DNA of 33,076 bases from Lachnospiraceae bacterium (GTDB lineage Bacteria; Bacillota; Clostridia; Lachnospirales; Lachnospiraceae), in NCBI GenBank assembly GCA_024684215.1, contig JAIKXH010000112.1, positions 1-33,076 on the forward strand, written 5' to 3'. Position 1 is the stretch's first letter. Each line of letters begins with the position of its first letter. Made by a program: the position numbers and the translations under genes. Below the pieces are notes generated by a model. It was not told the DNA's origin and made no database searches. It worked only from the letters and a program-made list of their open reading frames with translations. This document shows positions 12,043 to 31,350 of the stretch, piece after piece.

Positions 12043-12315
12043 TTATACCCCCTGGTCAGAGCCCATAAAGGCTTTTAACGGAGTCACCTTACCGGCTATA
12101 GCGGTGATATTATCCCTGTCGTTTTCAACATAGTTGACCAGTCCTTTTGCTTCCTCGTCGGAAAAGCCTTTGTTCATAAGAACTTTAATATCTCTTCCGG
12201 GCTCGGGCAAAAGTATCTCCGCCTTTTTGTCACCGTCCTCAAACAGAACGTATATTGATTTTTCTCCGTCTTTACGAAAGATCGGCGAAACATTCATTGA
12301 TATCTCATCACTCAT
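12043..12315 (-). CDS. Small acidic protein of unknown function
   Basis: 90 residues, soluble, acidic, without signal peptide or cysteines. The mostly beta-looking first half (SIYVLFEDGDKKAEILLP) is followed by a possible helix (SDEEAKGLVNYVENDRDNI). The stop lies 2 bp before the start of nnr, so the two are very probably translated together. I do not recognise a family with certainty; it looks like a small conserved Lachnospiraceae protein. Its reading frame, codon use and tight spacing argue that it is real. Confidence 0.7.
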   Translation of the reverse strand: MSDEISMNVSPIFRKDGEKSIYVLFEDGDKKAEILLPEPGRDIKVLMNKGFSDEEAKGLVNYVENDRDNITAIAGKVTPLKAFMGSDQGV

Positions 12316-12364
12316 AGTTTAATCCTCATAAATGACTACATATTAATAAGTATACCACAGTGCG

Positions 12365-12393
12365 TTGAAAATCAAAAAGAAATATGATACTAT
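12365..12393 (+). promoter_or_regulatory. Promoter ahead of the cobalamin riboswitch
   Basis: -35 TTGAAA (12365-12370) and -10 TACTAT (12388-12393) are 17 bp apart. They place the transcript start near 12400, just before the first riboswitch stem. Confidence 0.55.
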
Positions 12394-12399
12394 CACTTC

Positions 12400-12750
12400 G
12401 TTGTGTACTTTCATTCGATAGCCGCAAGGCTTGGGAACACGGAATGGAGTGAAAGTCTCCGCGAGTCGGTCACTGTGAAGCGCATGTACCATGAGGTGGA
12501 TGTGGGGAAGTGACTTAAGAATAAATACGGACGCAGTTCTTTGGCATCGCCAATTATAAGAAATACGTCATCATTCGCAATTTCGCGCTTTGCGCTCATT
12601 GCTCATGAAGACGCAGTTCCGGCTTCGCCGTAACCAGTCTACCGCACAGATGCTTATCGCTGTGCAAGCACGCTCTAAGCATCCGTACGGTATCCTGTTT
12701 TCTTCTTAAGTCGTAACATTGCGATAAGTCAGATACGTGAATGGGTACAC
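12400..12750 (+). ncRNA. Cobalamin (B12) riboswitch
   Basis: The conserved core is easy to read: GGGAACACGGAATGG, then GTGAAAGTCTCCGCG, then GTCGGTCACTGTGAAG (12433-12480), matching the family pattern GGGAAnnCGGUGnAAnUCCG...CCACUGUGA. Further on are GGGGAAGTGAC and, near the 3' end, the B12-box-like AAGTCAGATACGTG. The outer stem is GTGTAC (12403-12408) with GTACAC (12745-12750). The aptamer is unusually long because of an extended arm: GACTTAAGAA pairs with TTCTTAAGTC, and TACGGA with TCCGTA, enclosing about 130 bases. It precedes the DUF4430/ECF genes and indicates repression when cobalamin is plentiful. Confidence 0.88.
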
Positions 12751-12776
12751 TTGTTTTTGCCGAAACCGAAAACAAG
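12750..12776 (+). promoter_or_regulatory. Hairpin joining riboswitch and ribosome-binding site
   Basis: CTTGTTTT (12750-12757) pairs with AAAACAAG (12769-12776), directly followed by the AAAGGA ribosome-binding site (12777-12782) of the next gene. The stem shares a base with the last aptamer stem, so the two may compete. There is no T run, which favours control of translation rather than termination; this is inference. Confidence 0.5.
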
Positions 12777-12790
12777 AAAGGAATGAAAAA

Positions 12791-13192
12791 ATGAATAATA
12801 ATTTTAAAACACTTATCCGCAGAGCAACTGCTCTTGCGGCAGTTTGCGTACTTGCATTCGGTCTTACCGCTTGCGGCGCAAAGGGACAGAAAATCACTAT
12901 CGAAGTAACCGGACCCGATGGAGCAACATCCTCATTTACCGGCAAGACCGATGCTGAATTTCTTTTCGATGCTATCGAAGATATCGACGGTGTAACCATT
13001 GACGGTTACGAGAGCGACTGGGGCTACTATGTTACTACCGTTAACGGTGTGGAAGCTAACTACGACACCGACGGAGCATACTGGTCACTCTATGTTAACG
13101 GAAATTACGGTGAGAACGGAGTTTCTACTCAGCCTATCACCGAAGGTGATGTTTACGGCTTTGTATACGAAGTTTATCAGGCTGCAGAATAA
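12791..13192 (+). CDS. DUF4430 (transcobalamin C-domain-like) lipoprotein
   Basis: 133 residues from the ATG at 12791, which has AAAGGA eight bases upstream; longer frames would start inside the riboswitch hairpin. A signal peptide ends in the lipobox LTAC (Cys28), so the protein should be a membrane-anchored surface lipoprotein. The rest is a single small beta domain: KTDAEFLFDAIEDI, then DWGYYVTTVNGVEANY, AYWSLYVNG and ITEGDVYGFVYE. This is the DUF4430 pattern, related to the C-terminal beta domain of animal intrinsic factor and transcobalamin. Directly behind a cobalamin riboswitch and ahead of an ECF transporter, it probably binds a corrinoid at the cell surface. Binding is inferred, not shown by the sequence. 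Confidence 0.88.
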   Translation: MNNNFKTLIRRATALAAVCVLAFGLTACGAKGQKITIEVTGPDGATSSFTGKTDAEFLFDAIEDIDGVTIDGYESDWGYYVTTVNGVEANYDTDGAYWSLYVNGNYGENGVSTQPITEGDVYGFVYEVYQAAE

Positions 13193-13243
13193 TTCAGTTA
13201 CCGTTAATTTATAAAATTTGCAATCCACCTGCAAACTAAAAAA

Positions 13244-15049
13244 ATGTTAAAACCGGAGATTATATTCGCAAGTTCAAGACGTAATGCACTGACTCGCATA
13301 ATTTGTGTGGGTCTGGTTTTATTATGCATTTTTGCGGGTATTTTCTCCCTTTTTAGCGTTTCTTCCATCGCCAAGTCAGGCACAGAAATCACTGACAAAA
13401 CTACAAAAGATACAGAATCCTTTTCCGGCGTTTTACCGGATAGCCACTCTTCCAAAGACACCTTTGATACAATCCTAAACATTTACAAATGGAAAATGGA
13501 ACTTGAAGGTGCAAAAAACCTTCAGGATTTAATAGACGGCGCATTTTGCGACGATCCTTTAAACGGAACCAATCAAAACTATATTCTATCGATAATTCAA
13601 AATCCCGCTATCACAGCGGATTTTTCAAAATATACAAAAGCTCTTTCAGATGCCCTGTATGACGGCATTTCCACCGAAGAAGGAATCTTTCCGACTTCAC
13701 TTCAAAAATCACTTGTAACATTGCAACTATGCCTTGACTATAATTTATATAAAAGCCTCGGCGAGGATTATGTAAACCAAAATCGTCTCGCCGTCGAAGC
13801 CGTAAATCATGAGAATCTTCTAAATTATGTAAACCAAGAAGTGACCGATACCGCCCTTTACCATACTATCGGTGAAAAAGGCATCATGTCTTATATCTAT
13901 GGACTGTACATGCTGGATAACTGCCCTCTTTCAGAGCCTTCCGTGTCGGAACCTGAGATTATTGATGCAATTCTGTCACTGCAATGTGAAGACGGTGGCT
14001 ATACTCTTTCAGGTAGCGAAGGTGATACCGATGTTACCGCCATGACGCTGCAGGCTTTAGCCCCGGCATACCTTTTGAAATACGAAAAATACATTGAACT
14101 GCCTGGCGATTTATATGAGCGCCTTCGCCAAAGCGTAGACAAGTCGCTTAACTTTTTATCATTGATTCAGGAATCTACAGGGGACTACGGAAGCTTCGGC
14201 ACCACCTGTAGTGAGAGTACGTCTCAGGTAATACTGGCGCTCTATGCACTGGATATCCCTCCTATCTCGGACGAAAGATTTATAAAAGACGAGAATAACT
14301 GTCTGGACGGGCTTTTGATTTATAAATGTAATGACAAAGGCTTTAGTCATTCAAGAGGCTCCGTATCAAACGATATGGCTTCCTCGCAAAGTCTGCAGGC
14401 ACTTACGGCGATATTAAATTCATATGAATATGAATCCTCCGAAACTATAAATGCCGAAAATATTTCAGTCTCGAAAGCGCCGGCTTTTCCTACTAAAATC
14501 GTAATTCCCTTCGGCGTTATATTAATATGCTTAACCGCCGGTTTGATACTGTTTATAAAAAAGAAAAAGATAATCCATCTTATTTCAGCCCTCGCACTCG
14601 GTGCGCTTATCATCGGCATTTTCTTTGCTCTTGATATAAAAACCAAGGAATCGTTTGAAAACGAGAAAAGCAGCATTATATTTTCCGAGAGTACAAATGA
14701 CACTATCGAAATTAACTTTTTGATAAGTGCAGATACCATTAACGCCGGAGATATCTTCCCGGCCTCAAATCTGTATGTTGCCAAAGATTCCACGGTATTT
14801 GACGTTTTGAAAGAAGTCTGCCGCATAGAAAATATACAGCTCGATTACGAAAAAAATTCTGTATACGGCCTTGCATATGTAAAAGGAATCGATTCAATAT
14901 ATGAATATGAAAACGGTGATCTGTCCGGATGGATGTACCGCGTAAACGGTGAAATGCCAAATATCGGTCTTGGATACTATACATTATCGGCGGGAGACAA
15001 GGTAGAAATCCTCTATTCCACAAATATAGGGAGGGATTTGAATGATTGA
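13244..15049 (+). CDS. Membrane-anchored toroid + DUF4430 protein, intrinsic-factor-like
   Basis: 601 residues. An N-terminal signal-anchor (about 18-42) is followed by a large helical region (about 74-395) with repeats of the terpenoid-cyclase/prenyltransferase alpha/alpha-toroid type (QCEDGGYTLS...DVTAMTLQAL, ESTGDYGSFG...STSQVILALYAL, KCNDKGFSHS...SSQSLQAL). Two membrane helices (about 417-438 and 443-463) joined by KKKK come next. The chain ends in a DUF4430 domain (about 490-597: VFDVLKEV, LSGWMYRVNGE, LSAGDKVEILYS). The topology puts both large domains outside the cell. Toroid plus beta domain is the architecture of animal intrinsic factor/transcobalamin. No strong ribosome-binding site is seen at 13244. 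The stop overlaps ecfT by 8 bp. B12 capture is inferred. Confidence 0.85.
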   Translation: MLKPEIIFASSRRNALTRIICVGLVLLCIFAGIFSLFSVSSIAKSGTEITDKTTKDTESFSGVLPDSHSSKDTFDTILNIYKWKMELEGAKNLQDLIDGAFCDDPLNGTNQNYILSIIQNPAITADFSKYTKALSDALYDGISTEEGIFPTSLQKSLVTLQLCLDYNLYKSLGEDYVNQNRLAVEAVNHENLLNYVNQEVTDTALYHTIGEKGIMSYIYGLYMLDNCPLSEPSVSEPEIIDAILSLQCEDGGYTLSGSEGDTDVTAMTLQALAPAYLLKYEKYIELPGDLYERLRQSVDKSLNFLSLIQESTGDYGSFGTTCSESTSQVILALYALDIPPISDERFIKDENNCLDGLLIYKCNDKGFSHSRGSVSNDMASSQSLQALTAILNSYEYESSETINAENISVSKAPAFPTKIVIPFGVILICLTAGLILFIKKKKIIHLISALALGALIIGIFFALDIKTKESFENEKSSIIFSESTNDTIEINFLISADTINAGDIFPASNLYVAKDSTVFDVLKEVCRIENIQLDYEKNSVYGLAYVKGIDSIYEYENGDLSGWMYRVNGEMPNIGLGYYTLSAGDKVEILYSTNIGRDLND

Positions 15050-15923
15050 CAGACTCCACCCTTTATCCATACTTATCTATTTCCTTTCGGCAAGCCTTAT
15101 CCCGGCTTTTTCAAGAAATCCTGTGCTTCATACGCTTTGTCTCATCACAGGATTTTTGATGCTGTTTACCTGGGCCGATGCCGGTAAAATCCTAAAGAGA
15201 GTGCCGGTGTTTCTGCTCTTTTTTTTAATAATATCGCTGTTTAATCCGTTTTTTTACCACAACGGAAACACGGTTCTTTTTTATGTGGCAGGCAGACGCT
15301 TTTCACTTGAAGCATTACTGTTCGGTGCCGATTCTGCCCTGATTGTCATAGGAGTATCCGTTTGGTTTATAAGCCTCTCACACTATATGACCGGCGATAA
15401 AGTACTGCTTTTGTTTGGCGTTCTTTCCACAAAGCTTGCAACTATAGTTTCACTTATCATGCGCATAATCCCTCATTATGCCTCATATATAAATGCATAC
15501 AGAAAACAGCAAAAACTGATGGGGATATATGGTGAAGGCACGTTTTTGGAGCGCTTGAGGGCCGAGGCAAAAATATTTGCGGGATTTCTAACCTGGTCTT
15601 TGGAGCACTCAATGACCACAGCGGATTCAATGACGTCAAGAGGCTACGGCGTAGCAAAAAGGAAAAGCTATAGAATATACAGGATAAGACAAATCGATAT
15701 ATTAATAATGATAACTTCTGTCATATTTATCCTGCTCCTCGGTTTATCACTAATAAGGGGAACCTTTGAAACAAACTACTATCCTGTCATAGTTATGCAA
15801 CCTCAGGGCAGAGAAGCGATATTGTCCGAATCGGTTTACATAATTTATTCGTTGTTTTTGACTGTAAAACATTTGATAAAGGTTAATTATGGATTTTTTG
15901 AAAATAAACAATCTAAAATTTAA
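15042..15923 (+). CDS. ecfT: ECF transporter transmembrane subunit (EcfT/CbiQ family)
   Basis: 293 residues with about six membrane helices. The cytoplasmic coupling region carries RIIPHYASYINAYRKQQK and ends with the family signature ADSMTSRGYG (about 194-203), which contacts the ATPases. The start overlaps the preceding gene by 8 bp and has GGAGGG upstream; the 3' end overlaps the ATPase gene by 35 bp, so the genes are translationally linked. EcfT couples ATP hydrolysis to toppling of the S-component. Its place in a cobalamin-riboswitch operon indicates a dedicated (group I) transporter for B12 or a related corrinoid. Confidence 0.93.
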   Translation: MIDRLHPLSILIYFLSASLIPAFSRNPVLHTLCLITGFLMLFTWADAGKILKRVPVFLLFFLIISLFNPFFYHNGNTVLFYVAGRRFSLEALLFGADSALIVIGVSVWFISLSHYMTGDKVLLLFGVLSTKLATIVSLIMRIIPHYASYINAYRKQQKLMGIYGEGTFLERLRAEAKIFAGFLTWSLEHSMTTADSMTSRGYGVAKRKSYRIYRIRQIDILIMITSVIFILLLGLSLIRGTFETNYYPVIVMQPQGREAILSESVYIIYSLFLTVKHLIKVNYGFFENKQSKI

Positions 15924-17304
15924 ATATGCATCTTACGATGAGAGTTATATTCCCGAAGGAAACGTCCTTGACGACGTATCTTTAAACATAAACGAAGGCG
16001 AAATAATCACTCTCTGCGGTCCTACAGGATGCGGTAAATCTACTCTTTTAAAACTTTTAAAAAAGGAGATCGCACCGCAGGGAATGCAATCGGGTGATAT
16101 CATATTTTGCGGTAAAAATCTTTCTGAATTGTCACCGTTAGAGCAGGCCAAAGATATAGCTCTTCTTTTCCAAAATCCCGAGGATCAGATAGTTACGGAT
16201 AAGGTATGGCATGAAATAGCATTCGGACTGGAAAATCTTGGTATCAAAAATGCCGAAATGGAAAACCGCATTGCCGAAATCATTGCGTTTTTCAGGCTCG
16301 AATCCATTTCAAAATCAGATACCGCCACTCTTTCGGGCGGTCAAAAGCAGCTGCTGGTTTTAGCCTCACTTTTGGCCATGAGTCCAAAGCTTCTTCTTTT
16401 GGACGAGCCTATTTCCGCGCTCGATCCGGAAAATGCAGAGAGCTTTATATCCACCCTCAAAAGGCTCCACAAGCAGCTTGGAATAACGATCATTATCGCA
16501 GAACACAAAGTATCCTACGTGGCTCCGATCTCTGATAAAATGGCAGTCATGGACAAGGGCCGTATTGTATGCTTTGATACACCAAATAACGCTATGAATG
16601 TCTACGAAAGGCTCTTACCTCCAATCGTACCGGTAGAAAGCAAGATGCCTAAACCGGCCGATTCAGAGCCTGCGGTATCAATAAAAAATGCATATTTTAG
16701 GTATTCCAAAAAAGAAAAAGACGTACTTGAAAACCTTTCCGCCGATTTTAAAAAAGGTACCTGCTACTCAATTTTCGGCTGTAATGCCGCCGGAAAAAGC
16801 ACCCTTTTAAATCTGATATCCGGACTATTAAAAGTACAGGAAGGAAAAATATCTTGGGGCGTAAAAAAGCCTAAAATCGCCTATATTCCCCAAAATGTAG
16901 AGCTTATGTTTCTCTCAGACACTGTTCGCGGGGAACTAATAAATTCCGGCTACAGTAAGGATAATATTCCCGATTATACAAAAGATCTTAACCTTTCATC
17001 CTCCCCCTTTGATTTAAGCGGAGGAGAAAAACAGCTCCTTGCCCTTGCAAAAATATCCCTTCTCACTCCGGACATACTTTTATTGGATGAACCGAGTAAA
17101 GGAATGGATACAAATTTAGAGAGAATTATGTTCAGAGAGTTAAACAGGTTTACAGAAAACGGAACTTGCACCATTATGTCAACTCACGATTTACATTTTG
17201 CAAGAACAGTTGCAGATATGTGTTCCATCATGTCAATGGGCAAACTTACGGGCTTTTTGGATACCGAAGCTTTTTTCAAAAGCAATAAATTGTATTCAAT
17301 TTAG
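15889..17304 (+). CDS. ecfA: Fused double ATPase of ECF transporter (EcfA-EcfA')
   Basis: 471 residues with two ABC domains in one chain. Domain 1: Walker A GPTGCGKS (44-51), Q loop FQNPEDQIV, signature LSGGQ (148-152), Walker B LLLLDEP (168-174) and switch AEHK. Domain 2: Walker A GCNAAGKST (297-305), signature LSGGE (376-380), Walker B ILLLDEP (396-402) and switch STHD. Both sites look intact. The second domain is slightly shorter, with Q loop IPQNVELMF. Fused EcfA pairs are known in dedicated ECF systems. The gene overlaps the end of ecfT; 154 bp separate it from the S-component, with no clear terminator between. Confidence 0.95.
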   Translation: MDFLKINNLKFKYASYDESYIPEGNVLDDVSLNINEGEIITLCGPTGCGKSTLLKLLKKEIAPQGMQSGDIIFCGKNLSELSPLEQAKDIALLFQNPEDQIVTDKVWHEIAFGLENLGIKNAEMENRIAEIIAFFRLESISKSDTATLSGGQKQLLVLASLLAMSPKLLLLDEPISALDPENAESFISTLKRLHKQLGITIIIAEHKVSYVAPISDKMAVMDKGRIVCFDTPNNAMNVYERLLPPIVPVESKMPKPADSEPAVSIKNAYFRYSKKEKDVLENLSADFKKGTCYSIFGCNAAGKSTLLNLISGLLKVQEGKISWGVKKPKIAYIPQNVELMFLSDTVRGELINSGYSKDNIPDYTKDLNLSSSPFDLSGGEKQLLALAKISLLTPDILLLDEPSKGMDTNLERIMFRELNRFTENGTCTIMSTHDLHFARTVADMCSIMSMGKLTGFLDTEAFFKSNKLYSI

Positions 17305-17458
17305 ATTATGTAAACCACTTTGCACTATATATAGTACTGGTGTTATTTAAAAATGAAAGATTTCTTTCAAATTTCTATTATTTGAATTTTACATAAAATA
17401 AGCAATGGTTATACGTCCGGCAATAGACAACGGTTATCAATGAAGGTCACTTAAAGGG

Positions 17459-18079
17459 ATGATATTCGAAAAATATTACATTTTAATATCACTTTTTTTA
17501 ATCGCAGGATCACTTGCGATCGTTTTTTCGCGCCTTGATAAACGTCATACCGGAGTCAGGCGCATTACCCTTATAGCAGTCATGACCGCTTTATCTATCG
17601 TTGGCCGTTTTATCTTTGCTTCTCTTCCCGCATTTAAGCCTGTTTCGGCTATCATTATTCTCACCGGTATATATTTAGGAAGTGAAGCCGGATTTTTGTG
17701 CGGATGCCTTTCCGCATTTTTATCAAACTTCTACTTTGGCCAGGGTCCTTGGACTCCTTTTCAGATGGTTGCCCTCGGACTAATCGGCTTATTTGCAGGT
17801 ATTATTTTTTCAAAAAGACGTTTTAAACGCAGCAGTTTTCGTATGATCGTTATATGTATTTACGGACTTATCTGCGGCATATTTTATTCGCTGTTTTTGG
17901 ACACCTGGACCATGCTCTGGACCTACGGAAGTTTTGACTTAAAAGGCTATCTGGCAGTGATAAGTGCAGCAATCCCGTACACTGTTCTTTACAGTTTATC
18001 TAACGTTTTATTCCTTATTATCTTGGACATTCCCTTCGGAAAAAGACTGGGAAGAATAATCACAAAATACAGGATTTGA
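17459..18079 (+). CDS. ECF transporter S-component, probably cobalamin/corrinoid
   Basis: 206 residues with about six membrane helices and no signal peptide. The helix 1-2 region holds LIAVMTALSIVGRF, typical of S-components, where small residues contact EcfT. The segment GQGPWTPFQM (94-103) recalls S-components predicted for B12-type substrates. It follows the EcfT and EcfA genes and the riboswitch, so cobalamin (CbrT-like) is the likely substrate; a precursor such as cobinamide or alpha-ribazole is an alternative. The start at 17459 has GAAGG 12 bases upstream; an in-frame stop lies just before that, so no earlier start is possible. Confidence 0.82.
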   Translation: MIFEKYYILISLFLIAGSLAIVFSRLDKRHTGVRRITLIAVMTALSIVGRFIFASLPAFKPVSAIIILTGIYLGSEAGFLCGCLSAFLSNFYFGQGPWTPFQMVALGLIGLFAGIIFSKRRFKRSSFRMIVICIYGLICGIFYSLFLDTWTMLWTYGSFDLKGYLAVISAAIPYTVLYSLSNVLFLIILDIPFGKRLGRIITKYRI

Positions 18080-25762: not shown

Positions 25763-27568
25763 ATGCAGGCCATCATACTTGCCGCCGGAATGGGTAAGCG
25801 CCTTAAAGAGCTTACTAAGGACAACACAAAATGTATGGTAAAGGTTTTGGGCGTGACTCTCATAGAGAGACTTCTTCGCCAGCTTGAGACATATAAACTG
25901 AACAGAATTGTTATAGTAGCAGGTTATGAAGCTCAAAAGCTTACAGATTTTGTAAAAACCCTTGATATAAATACTCCGATAGAGTTTGTAATAAATAGTA
26001 TTTACGATAAAACTAACAATATATATTCTCTTTATCTCGCAAAAGAGCAGCTTACAAGCGATGATACTCTTTTATTTGAGTCCGATATTATTTTGGAAGA
26101 TTCTGTTATTGAGGCACTTATAAACGACGAGCGCGATACACTTGCGCTTGTTGATAAGTATGAAAGCTGGATGGATGGCACCTGTGCTGTTTTAAATGAC
26201 GATGATACCATTGAAAAAATCGTTCCAGGAAAGCTCTTCAATTACAACGATCGCGGAAGCTATTTCAAAACTGTAAATATCTATAAATTCAGTAAATATT
26301 TTTCGGAAAATGTATACATTCCTTTCCTGGAGGCCTATTTAAAGGCTATGGGAAACAATGAATACTATGAGCAGGTTTTGAGAGTAATAACCATGCTGGA
26401 CGTAGCAGGAATAAGAGCCAAACGTCTTTCCGGACAAAAATGGTATGAAATCGATGATATCCAGGACCTGGATATTGCCGAATCCTTATTTGCCGAAGGA
26501 AAAGACAAATTAAAAAGACTCTCTTCACGATACGGCGGATATTGGCGTTACCCCAAAATGATAGATTTTTGCTATCTTGTTAACCCGTATTTTCCTCCTC
26601 AAAAAATGGAGGATGAGATTTCCGCAAGTTTTCACACTCTGCTTACTCAGTACCCCTCCGGCATGTCGGTTAACTCACTTTTAGCCGCAAGAAATTTTGA
26701 GGTTTCCCCCGAAAACATAGTAGTGGGAAACGGCGCCGCAGAAATTATAAATCATTTAGTAAACAGTCTAGACGGAAATTTTGGTTTCATCAGACCCACT
26801 TTTGAAGAATATCCAAACAGGTCCGGAGACATTTCAAAAGACATTGTTTTTAATGCCCCCGCTCCCGATTTTACATATACAGCGGACGATGTTATAGATT
26901 ATTTTTCGAAAAACAAAGTTAAAAACCTTGTACTTATCAATCCGGACAATCCTACCGGCAATTACATTAAAACTGCCGATGTAAAAAGGATAGTAAAATG
27001 GTGCGGACAGAATAATATGCGCCTTATTTACGACGAATCATTTTCCGATTTCGCTACAGAAAAAGTGCACTCTCTCATTGACAACGGATATATAAAAGAA
27101 AATCCTCACGTATTCATTGTCAAGAGTATATCAAAAAGCTATGGTGTTCCCGGGCTGCGCCTAGGTATAATGACTTCCGGAGATACTGCTTTCATATCGG
27201 ATATTAAGAAAAAAATTTCCATCTGGAATATTAACTCTTTTGCCGAATTTTTTATGCAGATTTACGGAAAGTATCGTAAAGAATACGAATCATCCGTAAA
27301 ACTTCTTTCGGCAGAACGCGAAAGATTTAGCACAGAGCTTTCTAAAATAAAGGGAATCAGGGTTTTCCCTTCGATGGCAAACTACTTTCTTATCAAAGTT
27401 GAAAGTAAATATTCAGCAACCGAATTATGCGTGAAATTATCGGAAAAATATAATCTTATTGTCAAGGACCTCTCTGCAAAAATGATGGACGGATGCTATA
27501 TCCGCATAGCAGTAAGAAACACCGAAGACAATAATATACTAATCAATGCATTTAAGGAAATATTATGA
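25763..27568 (+). CDS. Nucleotidyltransferase / PLP aminotransferase fusion
   Basis: 601 residues. The N-terminal half (about 1-245) is a sugar/choline-phosphate nucleotidyltransferase: LAAGMGKRLKELT (6-18), Lys23, metal Asp in ESDIIL, and the LicC-type YEIDDIQDLDIA (228-239). The C-terminal half (about 255-601) is a class I/II PLP enzyme of the HisC/CobD group: INPDNPTGN (392-400), YDES with Asp424, Lys458 in SISKSYG and the phosphate-binding GLRLG. Such a fusion could make an amino-alcohol phosphate and load it on CMP, to be used by the next gene for polymer or wall decoration; this is inference from context. Substrates cannot be read from the sequence. It overlaps the next gene by 4 bp. 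Confidence 0.9.
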   Translation: MQAIILAAGMGKRLKELTKDNTKCMVKVLGVTLIERLLRQLETYKLNRIVIVAGYEAQKLTDFVKTLDINTPIEFVINSIYDKTNNIYSLYLAKEQLTSDDTLLFESDIILEDSVIEALINDERDTLALVDKYESWMDGTCAVLNDDDTIEKIVPGKLFNYNDRGSYFKTVNIYKFSKYFSENVYIPFLEAYLKAMGNNEYYEQVLRVITMLDVAGIRAKRLSGQKWYEIDDIQDLDIAESLFAEGKDKLKRLSSRYGGYWRYPKMIDFCYLVNPYFPPQKMEDEISASFHTLLTQYPSGMSVNSLLAARNFEVSPENIVVGNGAAEIINHLVNSLDGNFGFIRPTFEEYPNRSGDISKDIVFNAPAPDFTYTADDVIDYFSKNKVKNLVLINPDNPTGNYIKTADVKRIVKWCGQNNMRLIYDESFSDFATEKVHSLIDNGYIKENPHVFIVKSISKSYGVPGLRLGIMTSGDTAFISDIKKKISIWNINSFAEFFMQIYGKYRKEYESSVKLLSAERERFSTELSKIKGIRVFPSMANYFLIKVESKYSATELCVKLSEKYNLIVKDLSAKMMDGCYIRIAVRNTEDNNILINAFKEIL

Positions 27569-28788
27569 TTCTTTTATATATCGACCCCGGAACAGGAAGT
27601 ATGCTTTTTACCATACTTCTCGGTATTGTTTCGTCGCTTATTTTTGTATTTAGAAAGTTTCTCCTAAATATAAAATTTGCCTTTTCATCCGGAAAGCAAA
27701 AAGAACTTCCCGGCGCATCGCATGAATATGTTATTTTTAGCGACAGTAAACGCTATTTTAATGTTTTTAAACCTATCTGCGATGAGTTTGAAAAAAGAAA
27801 CATTCATATTGATTACCTGACCGCCTCACCTGACGATCCCGCTCTTTCCATGGGCTATAAAAACGTTCATTGTGAGTTCATAGGTGAAGGCAATCGTGCT
27901 TTTGCAAGGCTAAATACCTTAAACGCGGATATCGTTTTATCCACCACTCCCGGTCTTGATGTCTACCAGTGGAAGCGCTCAAAAACAGTTAAATACTATG
28001 TGCATATTTTCCATGCCGTCGATGAAGCATTAGGCTATCGTATGTTCGGCATGGACTATTATGATGCAATTTTACTCACAGGCGCATTTCAGGGCGATAA
28101 TATCCGAAAGCTTGAAAAGCTTCGCAATCTTCCCGAAAAAGAACTTACCGTTACAGGCTCCACCTACATGGATGCTCTTTTGGAAAAAAAGGAAACCACC
28201 CCCGAGCCGGAGCACAAAAAGACTGTTTTGCTTGCTCCTTCATGGGGTCCAAGCGCTATTTTGAACAGATTCGGTACTTCCCTTATTGAGGCTCTTCTTG
28301 GTACCGACTACTCAATAATCATAAGACCGCATCCCCAATCTTCTGTTTCGGAAAAAGAAATGCTGGATGAACTCATGAATCGCTTTCCGGATAGCAATCG
28401 GTTAAAGTGGAGCTTTGATAATAACAACTTTGATGCATTAAATACTTCCGATGTGATGATAACCGATTTTTCAGGAATAATTTTTGATTATTCATTGGTT
28501 TTCGGAAAGCCCATACTGTATGCCGATACATCATTCGACAGTGCTCCCTATGATGCCGCCTGGGTAGACGAACCGCTCTGGAGATTTGAAGTTTTACCGT
28601 CTCTTGGCAAAAAACTTGATGAAAAAGATTTCCCTCATATAGGCGATTTGTTAAACGATTTGATAGAAAACCCTGAGTTTTCCGAGGGAAGAAAAAAAGT
28701 TACCGAAACAGCTTGGCAGAAGAAAACCGAATCGGCCAGGCTCACTGTAGACTATCTCATATCAAAACATAAAGAAATTGAGGCGTAA
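27565..28788 (+). CDS. CDP-glycerol glycerophosphotransferase-family protein
   Basis: 407 residues. An N-terminal segment YIDPGTGSMLF plus one membrane helix (about 10-30) anchors it. The rest is a GT-B-like glycerophosphotransferase of the TagB/TagF type, with RPHPQS (254-259) and ITDFSGIIFDY (299-309), which bind the CDP-linked donor and its phosphates. Such enzymes move glycerol phosphate (or a similar polyol phosphate) from a CDP donor to a teichoic-acid-like chain or glycan at the inner face of the membrane. The start overlaps the previous gene by 4 bp, and the next gene begins 3 bp after its stop. The donor is presumably made by the upstream nucleotidyltransferase. Confidence 0.92.
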   Translation: MILLYIDPGTGSMLFTILLGIVSSLIFVFRKFLLNIKFAFSSGKQKELPGASHEYVIFSDSKRYFNVFKPICDEFEKRNIHIDYLTASPDDPALSMGYKNVHCEFIGEGNRAFARLNTLNADIVLSTTPGLDVYQWKRSKTVKYYVHIFHAVDEALGYRMFGMDYYDAILLTGAFQGDNIRKLEKLRNLPEKELTVTGSTYMDALLEKKETTPEPEHKKTVLLAPSWGPSAILNRFGTSLIEALLGTDYSIIIRPHPQSSVSEKEMLDELMNRFPDSNRLKWSFDNNNFDALNTSDVMITDFSGIIFDYSLVFGKPILYADTSFDSAPYDAAWVDEPLWRFEVLPSLGKKLDEKDFPHIGDLLNDLIENPEFSEGRKKVTETAWQKKTESARLTVDYLISKHKEIEA

Positions 28789-28791
28789 ATT

Positions 28792-31350
28792 ATGGGTAAT
28801 CCGTTATACAATTTATTCATACAACCGCTTGAGCTTTTGATAGAGCTTATTTTCTCTGTCATGAAGTCCGTAAGCGGAAACTACGGACTGGCCATAATAA
28901 TGGTGAGCGTAGTCGTAAATATACTGATTTTCCCCCTATACAAGCGTTCTGACGCTATGCAGGAAGCGGAACATAAAAAACAAAAAGAAATGGAGCCATG
29001 GATCAAGCATATTCGCAAGACTTTCAAGGGCGATGAGAGATTTATGATGCTCCAAACATACTACAGACAGCAAAACTATGCACCGGTCAGCGCTGTTAAG
29101 GGATCTTTCTCCCTTCTTTTACAGATACCCTTTTTCATGGCAGCCTACCACTTTCTTTCAAGCATAGATATGCAAGGTATATCTTTTTTATTTATACCTA
29201 ATTTAGGGGCGGCGGACCATCTTATAAAGATCGGACCTTTTGCAATAAATCTTTTGCCGCTTTTAATGACCGGATTTAACCTCTTATCCGCAGCAATATA
29301 TCTAAAAGGTACAAGGCTGAGAGACAAAATACAGACTGTAGTTTTGGCGCTGGTATTCCTGGTAATACTTTACAGAAGTCCTTCTGCCCTGGTTTTATAT
29401 TGGACCATGAACAACTTCTTTTCACTTTTAAAGAACGTATTCATGAAAATCCTCGGTCCTGTATTTTCAAAGCATCGTGATAAGAAGCCGGAAAACGTAA
29501 AAAAAGAAGCCTTCAAAAAGAGGAAAGCCCTGCCCTTTATACTGGCTGCATTACTCATTACCATTGTTACCGGTTTCGTTGTTCCTTCAGCGGCTGTAAC
29601 CGCTTCACCCGAGGATTTTGTGTCTATAAATCCCACTGTGAATCCGGTCATGTTAATATTTAATTCGCTGTTTATTTGTGCCGGCATATTTATGGTTTGG
29701 GGAGGCATCGTATATTTTGTAAGTAAAGAAAACCAGCGCAATAACTTAACTGCTGTTTTCTTTGCCTTAAGCATTCCTTCCGTTATAAACTACATGTTTT
29801 TCGGTCGAAATCTCGGAACGATATCTCCTTTGTTTCGATTTAATGACGGTTTAACCTATTCCAAAAATGAGCTTCTTATAAGCTCTGCCGTATTTGCGGT
29901 AACTGTGGTTTTATGTCTCATCATCTATGCTAAAAAGAAAGCACTTGTAGTCCCTGTCCTTGCGGCACTGTGTTTTTCTGCCCTTATACTTGGTTCATAT
30001 CAAACGATAAGTGCACAGAATAAGTTAAGCAGTTTAGGTATAAGATTCGAAGGCTCAACTATTGCCAATGAAGATATAGAACCTATTATTCCCCTTTCCA
30101 AAGAAGGTAAAAATGTGGTTGTAATCATGCTCGACCGTGCCATAAACGACTATTTTCCTTACATAGTAAGTGAAAAGCCCGAGCTTAAAGAAGCATTTGA
30201 CGGATTTACTTACTATCCCAACACGTTATCCCACGGTCTGTTTACCGTATACGGAACTCCTCCGCTTTTCGGTGGCTATGAATACACGCCTAAACAGATG
30301 AACGCAAGAAGTAATGAACCTCTTGTAGATAAGCATAATGAAGCATTAAAGGTTATGCCTGTTTTATTTTTAAACAATGAATACGAAGTTACGGTATGTG
30401 ATCCTCCGTATACCAACTATCAGGAGATAACAGACCTCTCTGTTTATGATGATTATCCCGAGATAAATACTTACGTAACCATGGGAAAATATGTTAATGA
30501 AAGTCAGCATTATACCAAATCCGTAAGTGATACCTCTAAGCGAAACTGCATATATTACGGAATACTCAAGGCTGTTCCTCCTGTTTTGCAGCGATTTGTT
30601 TATGATTATGGAGAATACTATCAGGTTGAGAAAAAGCATGTACAGGAACCTGAATTTATGAATTCCTATACAGTACTTGATAATTTGGATGTATTGACAG
30701 ATATCCGTGATGATGATGTAAATACATTTTTCATGATAGACAATAATACTACCCATGCTCCCTGTATTTTAAGTGTACCTGATTATACGCCAATCGATTC
30801 CTCATCGGAAAGCTCCGATATACCGGCTTACCTCGAACTTAACGGGCGCATCTGTAAGCTTGACAACTCAATACTGGTTCAGCATTATCATGTAAACATG
30901 GCCGCATATCTTAAGCTTGCCGAATGGTTTGATTTCCTGCGTGATAACGGCCTATATGATAATACACGAATCATTATAGTAGCCGACCACGGAAGAGCTT
31001 TAAATCAGTTTGACGATTTAATGCTTGATGAATTTGTTGATATTGAAGGATACCATCCTATACTTCTCTACAAAGATTTTAACAGTACAGGATTTAACAC
31101 TTCAGACGAATTTATGACAAATGCTGACGTTCCTTCGCTGGCGGTAAAGGACATAATTGAAAAACCCATAAATCCTTTTACAGGAAATGTAATAAATAAT
31201 AAAGATAAGGAAAACGGACAGTATATAACCACATCTCCGTATTTTGAGCTTAAAGATAACCCCGGAAATGTATTTAATACAGAAGATTCTTATTGGTATC
31301 TTGTTAAAGACAATATCTTTGATTTTAATAACTGGGTAAGACAGGAATAA
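28792..31350 (+). CDS. YidC-like insertase fused to LTA-synthase-like sulfatase domain
   Basis: 852 residues. Residues about 1-225 are a YidC/Oxa1-type membrane domain (NYGLAIIMVSVVVNILIFPLY, a basic loop with EMEPWIKHIRKTFKGDE, FMAAYHFLSS, LVLYWTMNNFFSLLK). A block of about five further helices (247-403) follows. The extracytoplasmic part (about 435-850) is of the sulfatase/alkaline-phosphatase superfamily: VVVIMLDRA with Asp448, a candidate nucleophile Thr485 in HGLFTVYGTPPLFGG, THAP at 654 and the metal pair ADHGR (731-735). LTA synthase and phosphoethanolamine transferases have this layout of helices plus enzyme domain. The added YidC part is odd for this enzyme class. It could be a phospho-group transferase of the surface polymer. 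Confidence 0.9.
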   Translation: MGNPLYNLFIQPLELLIELIFSVMKSVSGNYGLAIIMVSVVVNILIFPLYKRSDAMQEAEHKKQKEMEPWIKHIRKTFKGDERFMMLQTYYRQQNYAPVSAVKGSFSLLLQIPFFMAAYHFLSSIDMQGISFLFIPNLGAADHLIKIGPFAINLLPLLMTGFNLLSAAIYLKGTRLRDKIQTVVLALVFLVILYRSPSALVLYWTMNNFFSLLKNVFMKILGPVFSKHRDKKPENVKKEAFKKRKALPFILAALLITIVTGFVVPSAAVTASPEDFVSINPTVNPVMLIFNSLFICAGIFMVWGGIVYFVSKENQRNNLTAVFFALSIPSVINYMFFGRNLGTISPLFRFNDGLTYSKNELLISSAVFAVTVVLCLIIYAKKKALVVPVLAALCFSALILGSYQTISAQNKLSSLGIRFEGSTIANEDIEPIIPLSKEGKNVVVIMLDRAINDYFPYIVSEKPELKEAFDGFTYYPNTLSHGLFTVYGTPPLFGGYEYTPKQMNARSNEPLVDKHNEALKVMPVLFLNNEYEVTVCDPPYTNYQEITDLSVYDDYPEINTYVTMGKYVNESQHYTKSVSDTSKRNCIYYGILKAVPPVLQRFVYDYGEYYQVEKKHVQEPEFMNSYTVLDNLDVLTDIRDDDVNTFFMIDNNTTHAPCILSVPDYTPIDSSSESSDIPAYLELNGRICKLDNSILVQHYHVNMAAYLKLAEWFDFLRDNGLYDNTRIIIVADHGRALNQFDDLMLDEFVDIEGYHPILLYKDFNSTGFNTSDEFMTNADVPSLAVKDIIEKPINPFTGNVINNKDKENGQYITTSPYFELKDNPGNVFNTEDSYWYLVKDNIFDFNNWVRQE

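What the first reader, a model, noticed from the sequence alone, without database searches (positions are those of the whole stretch)
12365..18079. B12-riboswitch-controlled locus with intrinsic-factor-like surface proteins and a dedicated ECF transporter
A cobalamin riboswitch precedes a DUF4430 lipoprotein, a toroid+DUF4430 membrane protein, EcfT, a fused EcfA pair and an S-component. Seen: riboswitch core motifs, overlapping genes, domains. Known: animal intrinsic factor and transcobalamin consist of an alpha/alpha toroid plus a beta domain related to DUF4430. Inferred: the two surface proteins catch B12 outside the cell and hand it to the ECF transporter, a Gram-positive counterpart of the Bacteroides BtuG strategy. 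ECF S-components usually bind their substrate alone, so added capture proteins would be a new layer.
Basis: partly seen in the sequence, partly recalled or inferred. Interest (0 to 1): 0.85.

Follow-up and report, generated by a model that had tools for sequence, protein, structure and literature searches.

The report
Bacterial intrinsic-factor-like vitamin B12 uptake locus
An uncultured gut bacterium carries, behind an RNA element that looks like a B12 sensor, a gene set that looks like a vitamin B12 importer with surface proteins built like the human B12 carriers; the general idea was already predicted in 2007 and I found no test of it.

Summary
Window 12436-18079 holds a diverged cobalamin riboswitch, a DUF4430 lipoprotein, a toroid + membrane-hairpin + DUF4430 protein, EcfT, a double EcfA and an S-component. 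Rfam misses the riboswitch, which a ~216-nt insert splits; relatives show it (240/240 cells paired in 12 sequences, 7 pairs changed on both sides). The S-component's best solved relative is that of ECF-CbrT, a proven B12 transporter (profile E 4e-19). The 13 best Foldseek PDB matches of the 601-aa model are all transcobalamin, haptocorrin or intrinsic factor, although sequence profiles alone do not find these. In 119 sampled phylum genomes, 27 of 27 with the 601-aa family also have this S-component, 24 within 10 kb. B12 uptake is very likely; extracellular capture is likely but unproven. The idea is not new: Burroughs et al. 2007 predicted B12-scavenging transcobalamin-like surface proteins in bacterial CbiO/CbiQ operons. 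It is a well-supported new member of a predicted kind.

The parts
12436..12776 (+). diverged cobalamin riboswitch: P1 12438-12441/12736-12739, P5 12446-12449/12457-12460, P6 12481-12484/12720-12723, regulatory hairpin 12750-12757/12769-12776 (helix names by analogy, recalled)
   Evidence: 240/240 cells paired in 12 sequences, 7 pairs with both-side changes; R3, built without the window, hits both halves in the window, 46.9 and 53.2 bits; R1 best hit of the 601-base region 8.9 bits, E 0.0022, filters off; intact relatives have cobalamin families as best Rfam match
12485..12719 (.). P6 loop region of the riboswitch that carries the insert (about 216 nt longer than in L033); single-copy in the own genome
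   Evidence: minus-strand part 12566-12703 has a sub-threshold match to Clostridiales-1 RNA (27.2 of 48 bits)
12777..12782 (+). Shine-Dalgarno-like AAAGGA directly after the regulatory hairpin, 8 nt before the ATG; suggests translational control (inference)
   Evidence: sequence
12791..13192 (+). DUF4430 lipoprotein (transcobalamin beta-domain-like), 133 aa
13244..15049 (+). 601-aa membrane protein: N-terminal hydrophobic helix, alpha/alpha toroid (~70-395), two-helix hydrophobic hairpin (417-440, 444-460), transcobalamin-type beta domain (~485-599)
15042..15923 (+). EcfT (CbiQ-like transmembrane coupling protein)
15889..17304 (+). fused pair of ECF ATPases (EcfA-EcfA')
17459..18079 (+). CbrT-like S-component (substrate-binding membrane protein)

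Best explanation
A cobalamin-riboswitch-controlled operon for vitamin B12 (corrinoid) import. When B12 is scarce, the riboswitch lets the operon be expressed; in the window its last hairpin abuts the ribosome-binding site, so control is probably translational (inferred). The lipoprotein and the 601-aa protein sit on the outside of the membrane. The toroid and beta domain of the 601-aa protein together hold B12 as in transcobalamin and intrinsic factor (inferred from predicted fold and architecture). They pass it to the CbrT-like S-component, which is driven by the EcfT and double EcfA module encoded in the same operon (ECF part by homology, hand-over inferred).
For: (1) Riboswitch: covariation of the window-type element; best Rfam family of the two intact relatives tested is a cobalamin one; the core occurs in exactly the 7 of 24 same-genus genomes that have the 601-aa homologue, and 0 of those 7 but 15 of the other 17 have a standard RF00174 (Fisher p 1e-4). 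(2) Homologous loci: a cobalamin-type element on the toroid gene's strand and upstream of it in 54 of 80 named loci by three own models (tallied; partly in-sample, see Tried and rejected); RF00174 over Rfam's cut-off at the locus in 10 of 21 fetched loci put to Rfam, the window not counted. (3) S-component: 6fnp_A (182 aa, 'Membrane protein', of the ECF-CbrT entry) E 4.1e-19 by profile, next best 1.4e-4; E 6.9e-10 for the window protein alone, next 0.012. CbrT binds cobalamin at nanomolar Kd (PMC5997447, passages). (4) Fold: the 13 best PDB matches of the 601-aa model are transcobalamin/haptocorrin/intrinsic factor, E 1.4e-9 to 5.5e-7. For the lipoprotein model, 19 PDB chains reach E 1e-3: two of 3u7z and 17 of this animal family; by sequence its profile reaches haptocorrin at E 0.0077. 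(5) Co-occurrence: 27 of 27 genomes with the 601-aa family among 119 have the S-component, against 11 of 92 without it (p 3e-18). (6) Own genome: a MetH-type protein with pterin, cap and B12-binding domains and no CbiD.
Against: No binding or transport data. The published ECF-CbrT of L. delbrueckii was characterised as S-component plus ECF module; that paper's main text has no occurrence of 'lipoprotein', and 11 of 38 S-component genomes here lack the 601-aa family, so capture is not required by every such transporter. By sequence alone the 601-aa family profile finds terpene cyclases and alpha-2-macroglobulin, not transcobalamin, and the isolated beta domain finds nothing below E 1.2. Identity to animal B12 carriers is about 11-12% and the whole-chain superposition is loose (rmsd 9-17 A), so ligand residues were not verified. 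The window's own riboswitch scores below every Rfam cut-off and carries a large insert, so it may be impaired; with default filters R1 lists L033 (14.1 bits, E 0.2) but not the window, L030, L031, L032 or L034, and R3 finds only 4 of 30 RF00174 loci at E <= 1, best 22.9 bits, E 5e-4. L038 and L039 have beta-domain/toroid + ECF genes but no element by any model; their genomes keep RF00174 at another toroid locus (L037, L040). The genome is 92% complete, so the missing CbiD is suggestive only.
Confidence: 0.82

Rival explanations
1. The operon imports mainly a corrinoid other than B12 itself (cobinamide, another cobamide, or a precursor), with the surface proteins tuned to that ligand. (This overlaps with the best explanation, which covers corrinoids in general.)
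For: ECF-CbrT also carries cobinamide (PMC5997447, passages). A hairpin of the transcobalamin beta domain contacts the base of cobalamin (PMC1796856, passages). Riboswitch and S-component homology do not separate B12 from its relatives.
Against: Nothing here favours it over cobalamin. None of the seven proteins scanned is a corrinoid-processing enzyme, and the ligand range of this S-component is unknown.
Confidence: 0.3
2. The ECF part imports B12, but the DUF4430/toroid proteins do not catch B12; they anchor the complex to the wall, sense it, or bind a cell-surface polymer.
For: 11 of 38 S-component genomes lack the 601-aa family. Toroid folds also match carbohydrate-acting proteins, and sequence profiles do not reach transcobalamin through the toroid. 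The related domain superfamily also includes polysaccharide-export and DNA-uptake proteins (PMC1796856).
Against: The two-domain order and fold match the B12 carriers before any single toroid. The lipoprotein's significant fold neighbours are only 3u7z and this family. A double-DUF4430 protein gene and a CbrT-matching gene follow a standard RF00174 in L091; in L095 a single-DUF4430 gene and an S-like gene (not compared with CbrT) follow a sub-cut-off RF00174 match, 28.8 of 31.5 bits.
Confidence: 0.15
3. A cobalt or nickel ECF transporter (CbiMNQO type), as the CbiQ-like EcfT and cobalt-named ATPase matches would suggest.
For: CbiQ is the only Pfam match of the EcfT and cbiO is among the best ATPase matches.
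Against: None of the seven proteins scanned matched CbiM or CbiN in the rows shown; the S-component is CbrT-like; no CbiD was found in the own genome, so cobalt for B12 synthesis is not obviously needed; EcfT/EcfA names do not define the substrate (general knowledge).
Confidence: 0.03

Closest known systems
Bacterial transcobalamin-like SLBB surface proteins in CbiO/CbiQ operons (Burroughs, Balaji, Iyer, Aravind 2007, PMC1796856)
   Same: Toroid fused to a transcobalamin-type beta domain, second paralogous surface protein, CbiO/CbiQ genes, hosts usually lacking B12 synthesis, predicted B12 scavenging
   Different: Its main text holds none of the terms riboswitch, B12 element, S component or EcfT; the membrane hairpin between the halves is not mentioned in what I read (abstract, passages, sections 7 part 1, 8, 11)
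ECF-CbrT / CbrTUV cobalamin transporter (PMC5997447; CbrUVT in PMC6593275; passages)
   Same: CbrT-type S-component, EcfT and two EcfA domains
   Different: L. delbrueckii CbrT is predicted to share its ECF module with other S-components; no capture lipoprotein appears in that paper's main text; its cluster names a cbrS gene that is mentioned once and not described there
Animal transcobalamin, haptocorrin, intrinsic factor
   Same: Alpha/alpha toroid followed by beta domain; best fold matches in the PDB
   Different: Animal proteins are secreted and soluble (general knowledge); here both halves are predicted to be membrane-anchored with a hydrophobic hairpin between them; about 11-12% identity
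Bacteroides BtuG/BtuH surface B12 binders (search listing with abstract starts only)
   Same: Surface proteins that catch B12 next to a dedicated importer
   Different: Different folds (recalled, not tested) and an outer-membrane partner; analogy only
3u7z, RUMGNA_00854 of Ruminococcus gnavus ('putative metal binding protein')
   Same: Closest fold of the lipoprotein (TMt 0.91; sequence E 8.3e-9); that it is a DUF4430 protein is my inference from these matches
   Different: Titled as metal binding; no corrinoid in its title

Membership tests
Cobalamin riboswitch (Rfam clan CL00101) | Score above the curated cut-off | tested here: not met
   for the window and genome; 20.3 of 31.5 bits (RF00174, L107) and 20.9 of 50 bits (RF01482, L033) for intact relatives
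Cobalamin riboswitch (Rfam clan CL00101) | Core order GGAA - P5 - CACTG - P6 - AGTCAGATAC - closing helix, with covariation | tested here: met
   a relative is aligned to RF00174 along its length
Cobalamin riboswitch (Rfam clan CL00101) | Corrinoid-dependent structural change or gene control | not testable with these tools
   needs in-line probing or reporter
ECF transporter for cobalamin (CbrT type) | EcfT, two EcfA domains, S-component in one operon | tested here: met
ECF transporter for cobalamin (CbrT type) | S-component closest to CbrT among solved chains | tested here: met
ECF transporter for cobalamin (CbrT type) | ATP-driven B12 uptake | not testable with these tools
   needs transport assay
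Transcobalamin / intrinsic factor-like proteins | N-terminal alpha/alpha toroid plus C-terminal beta domain, same order and fold | tested here: met
   (predicted structure)
Transcobalamin / intrinsic factor-like proteins | Detectable by sequence profile | tested here: inconclusive
   601-aa family profile: not found; beta domain alone: not found; lipoprotein profile: haptocorrin E 0.0077; Pfam DUF4430 found in both proteins
Transcobalamin / intrinsic factor-like proteins | Conserved cobalamin-contact residues | not tested
   no residue-level superposition was available (pdb_via library absent)
Transcobalamin / intrinsic factor-like proteins | High-affinity cobalamin binding | not testable with these tools
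   needs binding assay
Bacterial transcobalamin-like SLBB operons of Burroughs et al. 2007 | SLBB/toroid surface proteins with CbiO and CbiQ genes in a host lacking B12 synthesis | tested here: met
   (host: CbiD not detected in a 92% complete genome; no other synthesis gene was searched)

The most novel reading that the evidence does not exclude
The 601-aa protein is a membrane-embedded transcobalamin: its two B12-binding halves are joined by a conserved transmembrane hairpin (two hydrophobic segments in 43 of 43 aligned fused homologues), so it closes like a clam over the mouth of the S-component and loads it directly, which would make it a substrate-delivery subunit of an ECF transporter. 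It and its lipoprotein partner may be the living bacterial counterpart of the ancestor of animal B12 carriers.
Probability: 0.35. Interest if true: 0.72.

Novelty: new member of a known kind. Interest (0 to 1): 0.48.

Why it matters
[quoted passage not shown] The 601-aa family occurs in 27 of 119 sampled genomes of the phylum and gives a concrete, testable candidate. If right, Gram-positive gut bacteria compete for B12 with the same kind of protein that animals use to absorb it. It would also turn a 2007 in-silico prediction, including the proposal that animals got their B12 carriers from such bacteria, into something that can be assayed with two small soluble domains.

Tried and rejected
Rfam alone would have dismissed the riboswitch; comparative evidence reversed that. 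My own first reading of the 3' part (GTGACTT and GGACGCAG near 12511-12540) was rejected: these lie in the variable insert, and the conserved 3' part AGTCAGATACGTG is at 12727-12739. I considered the insert as a mobile repeat; it is single-copy in the own genome. The structure counted was written by me from these same sequences, so its advantage over the slid versions is partly built in; two of its five measures (pairs with both-side changes 7 against 6.3 shuffled, pair types 11 against 12.7) do not exceed the shuffles. The RNAalifold structures of R1 and R2 are poor (12 and 17 pairs), so these models act mainly as sequence profiles; R1 rests on 27 of the 30 RF00174 loci (L067, L068, L071 dropped before alignment). 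R2 and R3 were built partly from the loci they were then run on: A5 from 14 of the 80, A6 from 5 of the 80 plus L033, L034, L043; R1 contains the RF00174 elements of L036, L037, L040 and L042. Hits there are not independent. R1 alone, built from loci outside the 80 as far as contig lengths tell, hits 34 of the 80 at E <= 0.1. The tally of 54 was entered by hand; in my crude ORF calling 14 of its 55 elements overlap an ORF of 150 aa or more by over 60 nt, and 33 of 55 lie within 400 nt of the next ORF start. Of the 26 loci without an element, several begin close to the toroid gene and lack upstream sequence (L101, L116, L149, L151, L170, L176), and L179 has an R1 match only at E 0.36. One pair among the 80 (L144/L148) looks like a duplicate and was not removed. 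In the even phylum sample, G066, G085 and G106 match the profile only in its beta-domain part and other genomes only in the toroid part. A plasmid search for the lipoprotein gave one record (not opened); the S-component search gave 45 records, of which four were opened: LPXTG protein - DUF4430 - EcfT - ATPase - S in Latilactobacillus curvatus; DUF4430 - S beside queG in Enterococcus gilvus; T - ATPase - S with no DUF4430 annotated nearby in Lentilactobacillus kefiri (the gene table is incomplete); and one without annotation. The RF00174 list of the phylum sample was cut, so co-location with RF00174 was not counted there; RF00174 itself is near-universal in that sample (110 of 119), so its mere presence in a genome says little. 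Of the six papers holding 'DUF4430' I opened two, by passages.


Full report
What is there. The lipoprotein has a lipobox (by eye) and one DUF4430 domain. The 601-aa protein has a weak toroid match and a strong C-terminal DUF4430.

The riboswitch. Rfam lists no cobalamin family in 12300-12900 even at E 10 and none in the whole own genome at E 0.001. Aligning the upstream regions of the window and five same-genus loci showed a near-invariant core at window 12438-12481 and a second block at about 12723-12776, separated by a stretch of variable length. From core to final hairpin it is 67-70 nt in eight relatives but 286 nt in the window (309, 178 and 244 in three sisters), so the window copy carries an insert in the loop of P6. 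On 12 sequences the four helices that I wrote down pair in 240 of 240 cells, and 7 of 20 pairs change on both sides. The covariation score is 0.443 against 0.148 for shuffled partners (0 of 500 shuffles reach it) and at most 0.095 for slid partners. The sequences are related, so the shuffle count is not a probability; the count of pairs with both-side changes (7 against a shuffled mean of 6.3) and the count of pair types do not exceed the shuffles. In an uninterrupted relative the best of 4227 Rfam families is RF00174 (L107, 20.3 bits, E 0.0024); in a same-genus one it is RF01482 AdoCbl (L033, 20.9 bits, E 0.083). Both are below curated cut-offs. My model of standard RF00174 elements (R1) gives its best score of the 601-base region at 12368-12531 (8.9 bits, E 0.0022); my window-type model (R3) finds 4 of 30 RF00174 loci at E <= 1, the best at 5e-4. 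I take the element as a diverged cobalamin riboswitch by descent; its ligand response is untested. Its last hairpin abuts the Shine-Dalgarno sequence in the window, whereas in L034 the same hairpin is followed by a terminator-like stem with six T, so the control mode probably differs between species (inference).

Riboswitch and locus go together. Among 24 genomes of the genus (own included), the core occurs in exactly the 7 that have the 601-aa homologue, once each. Standard RF00174 occurs in 0 of these 7 and in 15 of the other 17. In 5 of those 15 the gene after RF00174 encodes a protein with two DUF4430 domains (L087, L088, L089, L091, L092); the other ten were not classified. The S-like gene next to it in L091 has no Pfam match, but its only PDB sequence match up to E 1 is 6fnp_A, E 7.7e-5.

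Homologues elsewhere. Of these 80, 76 match my profile of the 601-aa family, 69 of them also have at least one ECF gene in the fetched stretch and 54 have EcfT, EcfA and S. Cobalamin-type elements lie upstream of the toroid match and on its strand in 54 of 80 (tallied); 34 of 80 are found by the model built from other loci alone. All 46 R1 hits in 93 sources lie on the strand of the toroid gene. Rfam itself calls RF00174 over cut-off at the locus in L036, L037 and L040 of 11 sources, L042 of 2 and 6 of 8 more. No other riboswitch family was reported beside the locus; the FMN riboswitches in L120 and L123 lie at 15-16 kb of those loci. Against the pattern, L038 and L039 have beta-domain/toroid and ECF genes but no element by any model.

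What the S-component says. A profile of 31 S-components finds 6fnp_A, of the ECF-CbrT crystal structure, at E 4.1e-19; the next best are 4hzu_S at 1.4e-4 and a riboflavin uptake protein at 0.013. The window protein alone gives 6.9e-10 and then 0.012. PMC5997447 (passages) shows that CbrT binds cobalamin with nanomolar Kd, that ECF-CbrT also carries cobinamide, and that CbrT lies in a nrdJ-cbrS-cbrT-pduO cluster.

What the folds say. AlphaFold2 gives the 601-aa protein mean pLDDT 85.7, with a helix 7-36, a toroid, helices 417-440 and 444-460, and a beta domain. In the PDB the 13 best matches are all transcobalamin, haptocorrin or intrinsic factor (E 1.4e-9 to 5.5e-7); single toroids follow at 7.7e-6. 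Identity is 11-12% and the overall rmsd is 9-17 A, as one would expect if the two halves are arranged differently. By sequence alone the family profile finds terpene cyclases and not transcobalamin, and the beta domain alone finds nothing. The lipoprotein model (pLDDT 80.8) matches 3u7z, titled 'putative metal binding protein', and then only transcobalamin-family chains down to E 2e-4; the next match is at 0.096. By sequence the lipoprotein profile reaches 3u7z (8.3e-9) and haptocorrin (0.0077). In 43 of 43 aligned fused homologues the linker between toroid and beta domain holds two hydrophobic 17-mers, and all 43 have a hydrophobic N-terminal segment. These 43 were chosen as full-length fused proteins, so this says nothing about split forms, which exist (for example L039, L160, L174).

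Independent co-occurrence test. In 119 phylum genomes, evenly drawn and at least 95% complete apart from the own one, the 601-aa family profile hits 27 and the S profile 38, and all 27 are among the 38 (Fisher p 3e-18). Reading the coordinates, the two lie within 10 kb on one contig in 24 of 27; in G063, G085 and G098 they are on different contigs. The own genome is one of the 27, and three of the 27 (G066, G085, G106) match only in the beta-domain part.

Physiology. The own genome (92% complete) has a protein with part of a homocysteine methyltransferase domain, a pterin-binding domain and two B12-binding domains, as in MetH, and no CbiD. That fits a B12 importer; no other synthesis gene was searched.

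How it most likely works. Shown: RNA structure by covariation, gene order, homologies, predicted folds, co-occurrence. Inferred: corrinoid sensing by this RNA, B12 binding by the two surface proteins, hand-over to the S-component, ATP-driven import.

What is known. Burroughs et al. 2007 (PMC1796856; abstract, passages, sections 7 part 1, 8 and 11 read) already described bacterial toroid + transcobalamin-type domains, a second surface paralogue, CbiO/CbiQ operons in bacteria usually lacking B12 synthesis, a B12-scavenging role and transfer to animals. Its main text holds none of the terms riboswitch, B12 element, S component or EcfT. I found no experimental test in searches for DUF4430, for transcobalamin with ECF terms, for lipoprotein component and cobalamin ECF transporter, for ECF-CbrT, for CbrS with CbrT, for IF/BtuG-type terms and for five rare terms; most listed papers were seen only as listings. 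The library holds only open-licence papers, so this is not proof of absence; the 2009 paper by Rodionov et al. is not held.

Verdict. The finding is real and its biological reading is probably right, but the idea has been in print since 2007. It ranks as a well-supported new member of a predicted kind, with a riboswitch variant that standard scans miss and a membrane-hairpin architecture that deserves a test.

Noticed in passing
window 12485-12719: Insert inside the P6 loop of the riboswitch, also present in sisters L030, L031 and L032 with different lengths and absent from L033, L034, L043 and L103-L107; minus-strand 12566-12703 resembles Clostridiales-1 RNA below cut-off (27.2 of 48 bits). 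Single-copy in the own genome.
   Followed up: partly
L034 9121-9287 (minus strand); L043 after 1594: In L034 the riboswitch hairpin is followed by a terminator-like stem and T run instead of abutting the Shine-Dalgarno site; the L043 sequence seen begins the same way. The expression platform seems to have switched mode within one genus.
   Followed up: partly
L087, L088, L089, L091, L092 (and L095, another family): RF00174 followed by a gene for a protein with two DUF4430 domains (one in L095, where the RF00174 match is below cut-off); in L091 and L095 a ~170-aa S-like protein without any Pfam match follows, and the L091 one matches CbrT (E 7.7e-5).
   Followed up: partly
L143 6807-7073, similar ORFs (by eye) in L109 and L123: Small HNH-repeat protein (PF18780 in L143) encoded between the cobalamin riboswitch and the toroid gene.
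   Followed up: no
L120 6824, L134 6850, L112 5739, L152 3449, L125 6647: A 233-318-aa secreted-looking protein between riboswitch and toroid gene with a shared motif (by eye) DNDGALTINDALYxAHE...LWGxxNGGSYGYY; no Pfam family over its cut-off in the three tested (L134, L125, L152). May be a further diverged surface binder.
   Followed up: partly
L041 290-6967, L145 2931-9026, L146 5481-10334: Very large (1617-2225 aa) toroid + DUF4430 proteins in the same kind of locus.
   Followed up: no
PDB 3u7z (R. gnavus RUMGNA_00854): A solved structure titled 'putative metal binding protein' is the closest fold of the lipoprotein; it could be checked for corrinoid binding.
   Followed up: no
window 25763-31350: Run of NTP-transferase/aminotransferase fusion, CDP-glycerol glycerophosphotransferase-like protein and an 852-aa protein with an N-terminal YidC-like domain (60KD_IMP at residues 31-219); the long rest of the last one was not studied.
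   Followed up: no
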